NCBI GenBank assembly: GCA_963556145.1
Contig: OY744463.1
Span: 6,696,001-6,760,000 of the forward strand
DNA: 64,000 bases
Direction: 5' to 3'
DNA from: Hygrocybe punicea
Taxonomy: Eukaryota > Basidiomycota > Agaricomycetes > Agaricales > Hygrophoraceae
Of this stretch, positions 48,213 through 55,165 are shown piece after piece (the stretch's first letter is position 1; every line of letters begins with the position of its first letter). Position numbers and translations under genes: made by a program. Below the pieces are notes generated by a model that searched no databases, was not told the origin of the DNA, and was given only the letters and a program-made list of their open reading frames with translations.

Positions 48213-48376
48213 CTCCCCCTCAAACCGCGCAAAGTCCGAGTTCCGACGCGAAATGCTTCACTTTGGCTGAGGGTAATGCTTTGGTGTATGACGTTGCACA
48301 TGCACATTTATTATCTCCACAGTTCCCGCAGTTTCCGCATGTCATCGCGCAGGTTTTTGTCTACTACACAAGCTGA

Positions 48377-49359
48377 TTACGCCACGTCAGAGTCATTATC
48401 AAGTTCTTCGATACCCAGCTCCACCATGAGCCTCACCCCAATGTCATGTATAAAAGCCTCTTCATACTTAGCTGGTGCTCCTTCGGTAACATACTTCAAC
48501 ATCTCCCTTTTACATCCAGGATTCATCTCGCCAAACTCCATGTCCTTGAAAAGGGCAAGTGCTTCTTGCCATGTTTGTGGATTCTGGCCATCGAGGAGGA
48601 ATCGGCTGATTCCATTCCACCAGGTGGCTTCCCAATCCTCGCTGCACAACTCCTTGTCTTCACAGTCTGCAGTATGATATGGTGGGGGCGGCTCACAGGT
48701 GATGATTCGCCAATGTTTGTCAATAGATTCCCTTGCCCTCACAAGGGCAATGAAGGCGATTGATGGGATTGTGTTGATGTGGTCGGAGGTCAATTCATGA
48801 AGTGGTGTCTTGACGAGTTTGTGGAATGCTTGTTCAAAAAAAACCGGAACACTGAACTTTTTAGATAGCTCAATAAGTTTGGCTGGATGGAATGCGAAAT
48901 GATGTCATTTATGTGGTGAACGGCGAAGTCCTGGATGGAGCGTGATTCGTAAAGTTGGCTGAGCTCAAGGAGTCCAATGAGGACCTCATTTAGGTATGGA
49001 GGTGGTTTCCACCTGGTCTTTAAGATTAGGAAGAATTACCGGGGAAGTGGATACAACAAACCTTCCATAGGCGATCCCTAGAAACATATCAAAGACCGGC
49101 TCTTTCACCTGAGGCAGTACAATAGGGTTCTCCATTGTTCCATCCAACTCGGGCTCATTTAGTTGTCGACATGCAAACATGTTCCGAAAAGTGAGTGATA
49201 TCCCAGCAAGCAAGGTGTTATGTAGTTTGTACAATGTATTCTCGACCTGCAAAGAATTTTCATGGTTAACAGAGGATAATTACTGGTAAATGTGCATACA
49301 AGGAAAATATGACTTCCATCTTGCAGGAAGAACTTTGGATGTTTCTTCAGTGGTGTCAT
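48377..49359 (-). pseudogene. BTB/POZ domain gene carried by the TIR element
   Basis: Exon 1 (49,300-49,359) gives MTPLKKHPKFFLQDGSHIFL. After an intron of 53 nt, exon 2 (from 49,246) continues VENTLYKLHNTLLAGISLTF, then RNMF, PELDGTMENPIVLPQVKEPV and FDMFLGIAYGRF. This is the BTB fold as seen in many Agaricomycete proteins. The C-terminal helical part ends LMVELGIEELDNDSDVA at 48,377. Frame changes are needed near 49,015 and 48,900 to keep the family-like reading (PPYLNEVLIGLLELSQLYES; HPAKLIELSKKFSVPVFF), so this copy looks broken. BTB domains mediate protein-protein contacts; its role in a transposon is unknown. Confidence 0.65.
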
Positions 49360-49434
49360 GGCGACAGTCACAGGACGTAACTGCAATTTGAACAAGCGGT
49401 GTGACCTATCTGTGTTCAGGAATTTGAACATATC

Positions 49435-51452
49435 ATGACTACCACACACACATTAGATCTACCAATCAATTTTCCACCACTCCCTCTTTCACAGTCTGGA
49501 GAGAGATGGCCAACGAAGCACATTGCTGCCCACAAGATCATCAGTGACATCTATAGTCATGCAATCCAAGTGCTTCAGCAAGACGACTGTGAGACGTTGC
49601 GAATTGGATACTATATCAATGCAATCTCATCAGATGCTATGCCGCTTTTAGAGGCATTAGAAAACGAAGGAGGATCCACTGGAGATCGCCTACCAGATGA
49701 ATGGCTTCATAGCTGTGCATTAACCCTCGGATGGATGGTGTTTAGTCTGCAATTGTACAGGGAGGTAGCTTGACAAAGGTATGTATCCACCATCAGCTTG
49801 TGAACAGCATAGCAAATCACTGAATATACTTACTAGCAAGGACACCAAAACAGCAATCCCACAGCCTGTGACAACTGAATCAACAGGACATGCAGGGCGA
49901 CCACGAAAACACATTGACCCTGCATATCTTCGAGAAGCCACGGTGAATCATCGTCAGATCAAGCTGAGAGAGCTTGCACAAATACTGGGCATCCATCGTA
50001 ATACGCTGTATAACCATATGAAGATGCATGGAGTGGTGTGACAATACTCAGCATTAAGCAATCAAGATCTTGACAACCTTGTCAAAGTCTTCAAACACCG
50101 TCAACCAGACTCTGGGCTGCGCTACCTGATTGGCTTTCTTTGTGCACATGGCTATCGAGTTCAGCATCGTCAAGTACTCCACTCTTTGAGGCGGGTAGAT
50201 GGGCTAGGCAATCGTTTGAGAGAACGAAAGGCTATAAAGAGGAAGAAATACCAAGTAGAGCGACCAAATTCACTCTGGCATGTTGATGGTCATCACAAAC
50301 TTATCCGGTGGGGAATTGTCATACATGGGATGGTTGATGGCTATGATAGAATGGTTCGCATACTGGTTCCAAACCTGATCAAGCAACTAACAATGCTGAT
50401 GCGCTTGGTAGATTACAGGACTCCAGGCCAGTAATAACAATCGGGCTGAGACTGTCTTAAAGCTCTTTCAGGAAGCTGTTAACGAGTATGGAATGCCATC
50501 TTGTATGCGTGGTGATCGTGGTGGAGAAAATATTGAGCTAGCAATCTACATGATCATGCACAAGGGCCCAAAACGTGCATCATTTATGTGGGGCTCGTAA
50601 GCATTCGGTCTTGAAATGTATGGTAGCTTGGCTCACCTCTTGCAGATCCACCCAAAATACACGCATTGAGCGGCTCTGGGTTGAGGTCGGAACACAATTC
50701 GCTCGACCATGGAGAGCCTTTTTCACTCGTTTGGAACGGCTTCACCATTTTGATGTCAGCGATCCAAGCCATCTATGGCTGTTACATACCCTATTTCTTG
50801 ATCTGATCAACAATGACTGCAAGCAGTTCCAGACTGAATGGAATTCCCATCCAATTTCGGGGCCCTGTACCAATGACAAGAGCCCAAATGTGCGTATCGT
50901 TCCATTCTAAATATCTTATCTGCTCACAAATAACTCCAGGATCTTCGTTTTCTTGGTCAGACAAAGCTCGGAATCTATCGTGATGAATGTGAGAATGTTC
51001 ACCCAGATACAATTAACGAATATTACAGTGTACATGGAAAGACTCAGAAGACTCGGCCTGGTAACACAGGTGCTGATGACGACTGGGAGAGTGATGAAGA
51101 AGAATCCCTGTTTGTACCTGAAGATCTTGCAGGGCATATTGCAGATCATCAGCAAGCCAACGTTCAACATGATGCAATTGATCCCCCATCTCATAGAAGT
51201 CCATTTTTAGATGACAACCAGGAGGAACTCTTCTATCGCGTTCTTTCCCAAGTTGTCAGTCAAGATATCATTCCTGCTGGTTATGGTGTACTTCCATTTG
51301 AGCAGGAGGGCGATGATGATTCATTTGAGGTACTTAAAACTGGCAGGGGGGGTAAAAACGAGATACGGATTGATTTATCTGGTTCTGTGTGGCAACAACG
51401 GGCGAAGCTCTGGGTTCAAGCATTAGATGTTGCCCTTCACTTCAAATTGTAG
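49435..51452 (+). pseudogene. DDE integrase-type transposase of the TIR element
   Basis: The N-terminal region from the ATG at 49,435 (THTLDLPINFPPLPLSQSGE) leads to a basic linker and a helix-turn-helix (IKLRELAQILGIHRNTLYNH). A TGA follows HGVV at 50,039-50,041, then QYSALSNQDLDNLVK and YRVQHRQVLHSLRRVD. The catalytic core has HVDGHHKLIRWGIVIHGMVD (first D near 50,284), EYGMPSCMRGDRGGEN (second D near 50,517) and TQNTRIERLWVEVG (Glu near 50,666). RPWRAFFTRLERLHHFD follows. After an intron an acidic tail ends DVALHFKL at 51,452. It belongs to the integrase-core proteins widespread in basidiomycetes and some animals (Pfam-style rve-like). The stop and frame changes make this copy defective. 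Confidence 0.7.
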
Positions 51453-51538
51453 TACTGAAATATATTTGTAAATAAATGTGATATGTGACGAGTGGAAATT
51501 TGGACTTGCTACATCATTCTTGAGCTGCCCACCCATCC

Positions 51539-53142
51539 ATGCCTACCTCCTGTCGTGGAACGACTGAGGGAAAACCATGCGAATGCGAGGAGTACTCACC
51601 TCCAACAAACCCTGACCCCTCACAACCAGTACGCTGTGAAGAGTGTCACCATGGCAAGAGCAGGCATCCAAAACCTGTGGGTCTGACTGCTCCAACAAAA
51701 GCGGGGACGATTCGTGACATTTTCACAAAGCTTACTTGTGATACACCAAAGTCGACCCTTGCTGAGGCTCGTTCTGAAACCTTGGAGAGTTTTCGAAAAA
51801 CATTGGGTTCGAGCTCTAAAAGCGTGTCAGCATCGAAGGTAAAATCACAGAGCCAACATTACTTCATAACAACCAATAGGATTTCAGGGAAAGGAAAGCA
51901 CGGCTAAGATGTCAAAGGGAACCGGCAAGTTGATTCAAGTGGGTTCTGTCGCAGTACTTGTTTGTGGCCTCAGTGTACGTACTCCGGGATGTGACATACA
52001 ATGAACTCACAACATATTCAGGCCGCCAGTGAATTGAAACGAAGCAAGGCTCCGGGTAAGATTGACTTGTCGAGGATGGAAGCCCAGGGATGTGCCAAGG
52101 TTTCTGGTGACTATGACGAGGATATCAAGTTCGATCCTAGCTGGACACATGAGGATGTTGATGCATTCCTTCGCAAGCTCCTGCCAATCCCATTTCGATA
52201 TGTTGATGGCTTGCCAAGCACTACTCGACCTCAGGGGCCTAAATCGCTCTGGGTACTGCTATTCAAGGAAAACAAGAAACTTTCAGTTGTTGCTAAGAAG
52301 GCTTCAGGAAAAGAGCTGTTGCAATACAAAGGGAGGGACAAGTGTGGAGTTGAGGATTCTCACATATTCATCAGTAAGGTGCTACATCATTTAAGTCCAA
52401 AAACAATCAGATTTAGTATTTAACATCATAGCACTACGAGAAAATGTACCTCAAGAAGTGTACAACTCTTGGGCAGAAGGATCTGACACCAGTGAGATGG
52501 ATACGGATGAAAAGGAAGAATCTGACGATGAGCCTGAGGACGATTTTCACAAAAAAGGAAAAGGGGGTATGCAAGCGTCACATGGTTCTTCTGCATGCTC
52601 ATAACTTTTTCCATCCAAGTTCGAACGTCCATAAAGCGACAATGTGATGCTTCCGATTCCGAGGCTGGAGAGCCTGTCCACATTAAGAAGAAGAAGTTCA
52701 AGACAGGTTAGTTGCATCTGTTTTATCGTTCATAGCTGGCACTAACTATATCTATTCACAGGCTTTGAAGCGACAGTCACAAGGACCAATAATGGTGTAG
52801 GGACCTCTTCCACCAGCGCATGTGAGTCTTCTCTCAGTGTCCTTGGACATTATTGATTGGTATTTGCCAGTATTCATTACTTCTGACTCTGAGGTTGATG
52901 CAAAGCCCAAGATTCAACGAATGGCACCAGTCTCCCAAGCTGCAGTTCAAGGATCTGCGGCAACCACAGTCAATCAGAAATCCCGCCGCCTTGTTTCCCA
53001 TACCCCACAATCAGTCCCTTACAGCGAAACAGCTTCCCTACGAATGGGCAATGCCCACTATCGTAACTTGTTTTCTGACTCCCTGGATCCCGTAGTCAAC
53101 CCCTGGTCATCGGAATATACTCTCCGGCAGATCTCTGTCTGA
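51539..53142 (+). pseudogene. Third gene of the TIR element, function unknown
   Basis: The gene starts MPTSCRGTTEGKPCECEEYS, followed by CEECHHGKSRHP, a Cys/His cluster that could bind zinc. A Ser-rich region follows. After introns comes a conserved-looking block: KVSGDYDEDIKFDPSWTHED, then VDAFLRKLLPIPFRYVDG, then PKSLWVLLFKENKKLSVV. Acidic and basic low-complexity exons run to about 53,142. The frame changes several times and a stop lies near 51,933. Proteins of this make-up are common hypotheticals in Agaricomycetes. Its steady position beside the transposase suggests an accessory role, which is inference. Confidence 0.5.
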
Positions 53143-53520
53143 TATGGTTGGCCTAGAAACAAAACAAAACATTCGTTTAATTTGACATCTTGCTAGATTT
53201 TCAATAATGCGACACTCCTTTTTTCATTGCTAGACGTAGCGCTAGACCCTCATATGGACACACACTTTCATTTATAGGACTCCCTTTTCAATTACGGACG
53301 CTCCTTTTTCAACCACAGATGTTCACTTCTGGACATTATTATCACCTTCATTTTTAACGATGATTTCAAGTTTGCCGACCTTATACTAGTATTACAGATT
53401 TAAATAATGGTTTGATTGATGCCTATTTTTGTAAGGCTAAGCACTAACATTACTACTGCTGCGCAAATCGCGCCGACTGCGGGAAATGTGGAATAATAAA
53501 TGTGCATGTGCAATGTCATA

Positions 53521-55165
53521 TTGGTGAGTGTGTCCGCCACCATGTCGTCAGTTGGGCAATACATGAGGCATAGTTTACCTTCTTCGATTACCCATTGGAT
53601 GAAGTGTAAACGTACATTAATGTGTTTTGTGCGCGTGTGATACTGATGTTCCTTCGATAGGGCGATCACGGATTGATTGTTGGAAAAGAGTGTCGTTGGG
53701 GAAGTAATGGCTCCGAAGACTTGGGATATGAGTGAGCGCAGCCAAAGCGCCTCCTTGGCCGTGTGTGTAGCTGCTATGTATTCGCTTTCTGTCGTCAATA
53801 ACGTGACTATATCTTGCTTTTTACAGCTCCAGGATACGGCCCCCCCATTTAAGATAAATGCATAGCCATTGATTGTACACCAATCCTCCACCATACTTCC
53901 ATCAGCATCAGCATAGCCTATCAGACCGTTTTTGGTGTTACCGTAGGACAGCCAAAGGTGAGTGGTTCCAGTGAGATACCAGAGAACATGCTTAGCAGCC
54001 TCCCAATGCGCTGGGCCAGGGTTCTTGGAGAATCTGGATAGCATCGTCACGGCGAAAGTGATATCTGGGCATGTACCGAGACATGCCCACATCAAGGATC
54101 CGATGGCTTCAAGGTACGGGACATCGCGCATGATGGCAAACTCATGTGTGGTTGAGGGCAACTGAGACGAGGTAAGTTTTACCTGAGTGTCCATTGGTGT
54201 GGATATAGGCTTACAGTCTTCAAGATTGAATCAGCATATTATCGAATCAATGTATGATCGTTGTGAGAGGTGAATGGTCCTCGCATCCCTGTCTCGATGG
54301 ATTTCGATCCCCAGGAGCCAATGTAATTCCCCCAAATCGGAAATTTCAATGAATCTATGTATACCGGCCTTCACGTTGTCGATGAGCTGAATGGAGTTCC
54401 CCGCGATGGTGCAATCATCCACATGGATGGCTATTATTGTGAGTTCGTTGTTAACTCTGAATATGAACACGGCTTGATCGACTTTGCAGCGTTTGAATCC
54501 AAGGTTATCAACTAGGATACAAACAAGCTTCTGGTACCAATGGCGGCCACTCTGCTTCAGTCCATACAACATTTTGTTCAGGCGACAGACTTTTCCAACA
54601 GAGTTGAGCGTGTGGTACCCTGGTGGTTGTTTCATATATATGATTTTGTCATTACTGAGCACTCCATTGAGATACACCCCCTTGATGTCGATTTGATGCA
54701 TTTCCAGGTCTAATTGGGCATCTATGGCTAGTATTGTGCGAACAGAGGCGAGCTTGGCAATGGGTGCATAAGTATTGAAATAATCTACCCCGGGGACTTG
54801 CAAAAAACCTTGAGCGACCAAGCGGGCTTTGTGTCTAACCATAAGTCCTTTTTTGCATGACAGACCCACTTTGACCCAACAATGTTTGCTCCTTCAGGTT
54901 TGTCCACTAAATCCCAGGTTCCCGCTTTCTGAAGCGTCTCAAGCTCCTCGTGTATCCCCTTCTCCCAGAGCAACCAATCTGGTCAGCGTTTAGCCTCGCT
55001 CAAAGTATGCAGTTCGATTGCCTCAGTGTCGCTGGTTTCCAACACTAGTGAATACTCCTCGGGGCAATCATCCATGGCCATCAGCGTCCATTCATCGTCT
55101 GTATTACCTTCATCGATTTCTAGCTCTTAATCTACATTCGGTAGTTGCACACCGGTGGTTATCAG
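53521..55165 (-). pseudogene. copia reverse transcriptase and RNase H
   Basis: The RT starts in an acidic linker and shows WLLWEKGIHEELETLQKAGT, WDLVDKPEGANIVGSKWV, then RLVAQGFLQVPGVDYFNTYA, MHQIDIKGVYLNG and KMLYGLKQSGRHWYQKL. The catalytic loop reads IAIHVDDCTIAG, HVDD in place of the commoner YVDD. A frame change lies at about 54,785-54,869 between GSKWV and KGLMVRHKARLV, and another break at about 54,195-54,231. RNase H follows (GYADADGSMVEDW, TESEYIAATHTAKEALWL) up to ADTLT, where the 5.23 kb TIR element cuts it. Its last codons lie at about 48,222-48,286. Confidence 0.85.

What the first reader, a model, noticed from the sequence alone, without database searches (positions are those of the whole stretch)
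48287..53520. TIR transposon with integrase-type DDE transposase, 6-bp target duplication and a BTB gene
Seen: about 46-bp inverted ends starting TATGAC, TTGGTG on both sides, and an interrupted RNase H frame that is restored when the element is removed. Inside are three genes: an HTH plus D,D,E integrase-core protein, a Cys/His-cluster protein, and a BTB/POZ protein facing outward. Integrase-core hypotheticals are common in basidiomycete genomes but are often listed as orphan genes. Here exact borders show such a gene inside a TIR transposon. I know no named superfamily that joins these ends, a 6-bp duplication and this gene set.
Basis: partly seen in the sequence, partly recalled or inferred. 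Interest (0 to 1): 0.85.

Follow-up and report, generated by a model that had tools for sequence, protein, structure and literature searches.

The report
Mushroom transposon carrying a BTB gene
This is a real DNA transposon in a mushroom-type fungus that fits a known superfamily (IS3EU), and its lineage carries two extra conserved genes, one of them a BTB protein, that look like helper genes and also occur as a pair elsewhere in the same genome.

Summary
The element is 48287-53520, with ~46-bp inverted ends (TATGAC..GTCATA), inside a Ty1/copia retrotransposon. In 11 of 11 uninterrupted copia copies examined the flanks overlap by exactly TTGGTG, so the 6-bp duplication is shown. The transposase is an integrase-fold DD34E enzyme (Pfam PF24764).

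The claim that no named superfamily fits is not supported: TA..TA ends, 6-bp duplications and an integrase-like transposase without HHCC are the published description of IS3EU/GingerRoot (PMC10045372). Comparison with Repbase proteins was impossible.

The gene set is the new part. The window family and two further families with exact borders (L066/L067, L068) hold transposase, BTB and Cys/His genes inside their ends. All 10 tree rows with a BTB relative nearby lie in one 16-row clade; 23 of 24 rows without lie outside. In Favolaschia the closest transposase and a BTB of this family have consecutive tags. Both extra genes show purifying selection.

Unexpectedly, the BTB-Cys/His pair occurs 14 more times, divergent 14 of 14, without this transposase; at the one such flank read, a CxC6 transposon-type gene lies alongside. 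The pair may be a module shared between transposon types.

The parts
48281..48286 (.). Target site duplication TTGGTG, left
   Evidence: 11 of 11 uninterrupted copia sites have it once
48287..48332 (+). Left terminal inverted repeat, TATGACGTTGCACATGCACATTTATTAT..
48377..49359 (-). BTB-type gene facing the left end; frame shifted in this copy. Exon limits from the sister copy and by eye
   Evidence: (PF00651 16.1 bits, below the 20.5 cut-off); family confirmed as BTB through relatives
49435..51452 (+). Transposase gene, exons 49435-49778, 49837-50365, 50427-50596, 50646-50889, 50940-51452; two in-frame TGA codons in this copy. HTH near 49950-50030; catalytic D 50285-50287, D 50514-50516, E 50668-50670
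   Evidence: exon limits by comparison with the sister copy and splice signals, catalytic coordinates counted by hand
51539..53142 (+). Third gene: N-terminal Cys/His cluster (C..CxC..CxxCxHGxSxH) and a conserved core exon within 51995-52423; 3' exons not fully resolved
53476..53520 (-). Right terminal inverted repeat, ends GTCATA
53521..53526 (.). Target site duplication TTGGTG, right
53527..54893 (-). Ty1/copia reverse transcriptase / RNase H region interrupted by the element (continues left of 48281)
   Evidence: named by its sequence (my reading)

Best explanation
It is a DNA transposon that fits the IS3EU/GingerRoot superfamily and belongs to an Agaricomycete lineage of it that carries two further genes of its own, a BTB protein and a Cys/His protein. 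Shown: exact ends, 6-bp duplication, invariant DD34E triad on an integrase-like fold, the same three genes inside the ends of other families, selection on all three. Inferred: the HTH binds the TATGRC ends, the core cuts them and joins them to target strands 6 bp apart. Also inferred: the BTB protein, which looks like BTB(-BACK) adaptors of CUL3 ubiquitin ligases, acts together with the Cys/His protein on a host silencing or transposition factor or on the transposase itself, in favour of the element.
Against: No Repbase IS3EU or GingerRoot protein could be compared. L066 has a 7-bp repeat (TCGGGTA) and L074 (a non-BTB relative) has imperfect ends. Empty sites for L067 and L068 were not found. 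Rust IS3EU ends are TAYGG..CCRTA; the window has TATGA..TCATA, though L067 and L068 have TATGG..CCATA. BTB absence in other lineages rests on a query from this lineage, so distant BTBs there could be missed; L030 lies in the clade with no BTB found. Synonymous sites are near saturation in the dN/dS values. The BTB fold match is weak in E-value (best 1.0e-3). 14 pairs without rva_4 show that the extra genes are not tied to this transposase alone. CUL3 binding and any effect on silencing are untested.
Confidence: 0.82

Rival explanations
1. The BTB-Cys/His pair is a two-gene accessory module that moves between unrelated fungal DNA transposons, as TET/JBP genes do, and the IS3EU lineage is one of its carriers. 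(It can be true together with the best explanation.)
For: Of 37 BTB relatives, 14 have a third-gene relative within 8 kb and no rva_4, divergent in 14 of 14, 13 of them 1.36-1.68 kb apart. At the one such flank read, a CxC6 gene (PF18721, 4.7e-18) lies about 2 kb on. TET/JBP genes are known to pass between transposon superfamilies.
Against: Only 1 of 14 flanks was read, on one side and for 2.5 kb; no ends or duplications were seen there; transposon genes are frequent in such genomes, so one neighbour can be chance; the 14 may be relics of IS3EU copies or host genes.
Confidence: 0.3
2. The element is a superfamily of its own, related to but distinct from IS3EU/GingerRoot.
For: No named IS3EU protein could be compared; the gene set is unreported in the searches made.
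Against: Ends, duplication length, lack of HHCC and position of the first D all fit the published IS3EU description.
Confidence: 0.07
3. BTB and Cys/His genes are host genes caught by chance and carried along without a function.
For: Both copies of the window's family have a damaged BTB gene; BTB genes are common in fungi (recalled).
Against: Recurrence inside the ends of three families, one clade, a second species and dN/dS well under 1.
Confidence: 0.08

Closest known systems
IS3EU / GingerRoot superfamily (PMC10045372: abstract, passages, section 3.3)
   Same: TA..TA ends, 6-bp TSD, integrase-like transposase without HHCC, first catalytic D within 100-300 residues of the N-terminus
   Different: BTB and Cys/His genes are not mentioned in what I read; no direct sequence comparison was possible
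Rust IS3EU families with TET/JBP and alpha-kinase (PMC12730594: outline, passages, sections 3.2 and 4.1)
   Same: 6-bp TSD, TIRs over 30 bp, TA ends, extra genes besides the transposase; L067 and L068 have their TAYGG..CCRTA ends
   Different: Other extra genes; in this genome 0 of 96 TET/JBP and 0 of 27 alpha-kinase matches lie within 8 kb of rva_4
CxC5/CxC6 mobile insert of Pleurotus ostreatus (PMC7641404: abstract and passages)
   Same: A CxC6-type gene lies beside one BTB-Cys/His pair that has no rva_4 (L076)
   Different: That paper's main text has no BTB; no borders seen at L076
KBTBD, SPOP, NPR1 and viral A55 BTB proteins
   Same: BTB fold with helices after it
   Different: No Kelch, MATH, zinc-finger or other Pfam domain found in P0121 or P0163

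Membership tests
IS3EU/GingerRoot | TA..TA termini | tested here: met
   TATGAC..GTCATA in the window; TATGGC ends in L067 and L068; TATGAC ends in L063, L064. L074 has one TTTGGC end
IS3EU/GingerRoot | Usually 6-bp target site duplication | tested here: met
   11 of 11 empty sites; 6-bp repeats at L063, L064, L067, L068; L066 has 7 bp
IS3EU/GingerRoot | Integrase-like DDE core, no HHCC, first D 100-300 residues from the N-terminus | tested here: met
IS3EU/GingerRoot | Groups with named IS3EU/GingerRoot transposases on a tree | not testable with these tools
   Repbase sequences not on hand
Ginger1 and Ginger2 | 4-5 bp TSD; HHCC in Ginger1 | tested here: not met
   6 bp; no conserved HHCC; published values
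IS481EU | TSDs of about 4, 15 or 25 bp | tested here: not met
   6 bp; published values
Dada | No terminal inverted repeats, insertion in small RNA genes | tested here: not met
   46-bp TIRs, inserted in copia; published description (passages)
KDZ (Kyakuja-Dileera-Zisupton) | 7-8 bp TSD | tested here: not met
   6 bp; published values
BTB proteins | BTB/POZ domain | tested here: met
   For relatives: P0129 1.1e-10, profile to KBTBD4 3e-5, P0121 model, 50 of 50 listed matches being BTB proteins with best E 1.0e-3. The window's own exon is below the Pfam cut-off
CUL3 adaptor | Binds CUL3 and a substrate | not testable with these tools
   Needs a binding assay

The most novel reading that the evidence does not exclude
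A BTB plus Cys/His gene pair is a transferable accessory module of fungal DNA transposons, carried by IS3EU and by at least one unrelated (CxC5/CxC6-type) element, and acts as a ubiquitin-ligase adaptor against host silencing: a protein-degradation counterpart of the transposon-borne TET/JBP demethylases.
Probability: 0.25. Interest if true: 0.8.

Novelty: new variant of a known kind. Interest (0 to 1): 0.56.

Why it matters
It ties a large set of 'integrase core' hypothetical proteins of mushrooms to a transposon type with exact borders, and shows a conserved, selected pair of helper genes that the searched literature does not link to transposons. If the pair recurs on other transposon types, it would be a second class of transferable transposon accessory genes in fungi beside TET/JBP, with a testable target: recruitment of a ubiquitin ligase.

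Tried and rejected
Ginger, IS481EU, Dada and KDZ were rejected on duplication length, ends or HHCC (membership rows). P, Kolobok and hAT were considered from recall only and not tested. A viral-contig scan with part of the transposase found no relative. TET/JBP and alpha-kinase as cargo in this genome: 0 of 96 and 0 of 27 near rva_4. Joined-flank searches for empty sites of L067 and L068 gave no match spanning the join among the 40 rows listed for each; L067's right flank is a repeat that many matches enter exactly at the border, so its ACCGTT repeat rests on the flanks alone. The first third-gene search used a wrong reading frame, as did the 'third' row; replace them. The BTB protein search gave 1 hit with one sequence and 49, the query included, with an alignment; 1 of those 49 could be tied to a listed transposase by tag and contig length, most of the BTB species not being among the 120 of 170 transposases listed. 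The tree used 102 of 136 qualifying rows, 34 of them from this genome (of 76 merged rva_4 loci); four near-duplicates (L022, L026, L033, L036) and rows with under 190 columns, L041, L042, L043, L046 and L047 among them, were dropped first. Only 10 of the 15 rva_4 loci with a BTB nearby were in hand for it. Complete borders were not found in the stretches held for L069-L073 and L075.
Full report
WHAT IS THERE. The window lies in an unnamed 92.2-Mb genome of 42 contigs; that it is an Agaricomycete is inferred from its protein relatives. Element 48287-53520 starts TATGAC and ends GTCATA, with inverted repeats of about 46 bp, between two TTGGTG. It interrupts a Ty1/copia retrotransposon. The right flank matches 29 places; 12 loci were fetched, one of them the window itself, and in the other 11 of 11 the left and right flanks are contiguous and overlap by exactly TTGGTG. 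Border and 6-bp duplication are therefore shown. No second such pair of ends exists in the window, and 5 shuffles gave none.

COPIES. A sister copy (L062, contig C39) is 97.8% identical over 48287-52880 and then lacks the right end. Of 96 mismatches, 66 are CpG against TpG or CpA, as expected of decay at methylated cytosine. The window's transposase has two in-frame TGA codons where the sister reads arginine; the first is CGA in the sister. The sister's transposase reads 599 aa over five exons without a stop.

SUPERFAMILY. Kojima and Bao (PMC10045372; abstract, passages and section 3.3) describe IS3EU as always TA..TA with TSDs usually 6 bp, without HHCC and with the first D 100-300 residues from the N-terminus, in one lineage with GingerRoot. 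Kojima 2025 (PMC12730594; outline, passages and two sections) reports rust IS3EU with 6-bp TSDs, ends TAYGG..CCRTA and TET/JBP plus alpha-kinase genes. The testable features are met here (membership rows). The tree against named IS3EU proteins could not be made. IS3EU also appears in transposon tables of Ganoderma and Phlebopus (passages).

RELATED ELEMENTS IN THE SAME GENOME. PF24764 gave 159 matches, not all listed, which I merged by hand into 76 loci. Borders: L067 (C33, 5264 bp, ACCGTT), L066 (C36, 99.7% identical to L067, 7-bp TCGGGTA), L068 (C7, 6063 bp, TGTTTT), and two shorter elements with the window's ends, L063 (898 bp, TTGCAC) and L064 (1957 bp, CATGCA). L074, with no BTB found nearby, has imperfect ends and a repeat CCTGGG. 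L066, L067 and L068 hold transposase, BTB and third gene inside their ends (positions). In L067 the BTB and transposase are divergent as in the window; in L068 they lie on one strand.

THE EXTRA GENES. Of 37 BTB relatives in the genome, 12 of the 15 with E up to 1e-20 and 3 of the 22 weaker lie within 8 kb of an rva_4 locus, against 1.3% expected per locus. Controls: TET/JBP 0 of the 96 over cut-off (122 in all), alpha-kinase 0 of 27, generic PF00651 1 of 17. That the protein is a BTB rests on relatives: P0129 1.1e-10, profile to KBTBD4 3e-5, and the Mycena P0121 model (mean pLDDT 91.7), whose 50 listed matches are all BTB proteins at best E 1.0e-3. P0121 and P0163 themselves have no Pfam match. 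The third gene has an N-terminal C..CxC..CxxCxHGxSxH cluster, seen in whole or part in the window, L067, L068 and L070, and a conserved core; no Pfam family above cut-off. Selection between families: BTB dN/dS 0.15, transposase exon 0.12, third-gene core 0.054, Cys/His exon 0.35, with synonymous sites near saturation in all but the last; between close copies of L068 pN/pS for BTB is 0.18 and 0.41.

LINEAGE. In a 102-row tree (SH-aLRT only), the 10 rows with a BTB nearby and Favolaschia P0001 lie in one 16-row clade (support 95) with L030 (no BTB found), P0002, P0003, P0004 and P0007 (not known); the other 23 own-genome rows without a BTB nearby lie outside. In Favolaschia the closest transposase (tag 3317322) and a BTB of this family (3317323) have consecutive tags and the same longest-contig length, so the association is not private to one genome. 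Caveat: BTBs were sought with a query from this lineage.

A PAIR WITHOUT THE TRANSPOSASE. In its right frame the third gene has 35 relatives. Of 37 BTB relatives, 14 have both third gene and rva_4 within 8 kb, 1 has rva_4 alone, 14 the third gene alone, 8 neither; the 14 are divergent in 14 of 14, 13 of them 1.36-1.68 kb apart. One such flank was read (L076, 2.5 kb): a CxC6 gene (PF18721, 4.7e-18) lies about 2 kb on, on the other strand. In Pleurotus, CxC5/CxC6 genes sit on a mobile insert and no KDZ transposon was found near them (PMC7641404, abstract and passages).

MECHANISM. Shown: insertion with a 6-bp duplication, conserved ends, invariant triad, selection on the three genes. Inferred: HTH binding to the ends, cut and strand transfer, and the BTB protein as a ubiquitin-ligase adaptor aimed at a silencing factor or at the transposase. 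The CpG decay suggests that the host methylates such elements, which would give helper genes something to act against; no link is shown.

LITERATURE. IS3EU with BTB: one unrelated buffalo paper. BTB with DNA transposon, Agaricomycet- and terminal inverted repeats: none. BTB with transposase, basidiomycet- and captur-: three papers, seen as listings only. The library holds open-licence PMC papers only.

Noticed in passing
L064 353-2309 (C39): A 1957-bp element with the window's ends (TATGAC) and duplication CATGCA has inserted into a remnant of the right end of the window's family (53231-53509, 98.9% identical at L064 2309-2587).
   Followed up: partly
48287-52880 against L062: 66 of 96 mismatches between the two copies are CpG against TpG/CpA, which suggests cytosine methylation of these elements.
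   Followed up: partly
L076 (C8:4737900-4740400): A CxC6-type gene (PF18721) lies beside a BTB-Cys/His pair that has no rva_4 transposase nearby; 13 similar pairs remain unread.
   Followed up: partly
L066 7712-8362 (C36): A short palindromic element with TATGACG ends lies directly beside the right end of L066, so that the L066 insertion fell at its edge, which may explain the 7-bp repeat.
   Followed up: no
Own genome, PF12851: The genome holds at least 96 TET/JBP matches over the Pfam cut-off, none within 8 kb of an rva_4 locus.
   Followed up: partly
L062, beyond the point matching 52880: The sister copy's right part is replaced by sequence that reads like a helix-turn-helix of another transposase (by eye, not tested).
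   Followed up: no
P0067: A close relative is filed under the willow Salix suchowensis; a fungal contaminant seems likely (my inference).
   Followed up: no
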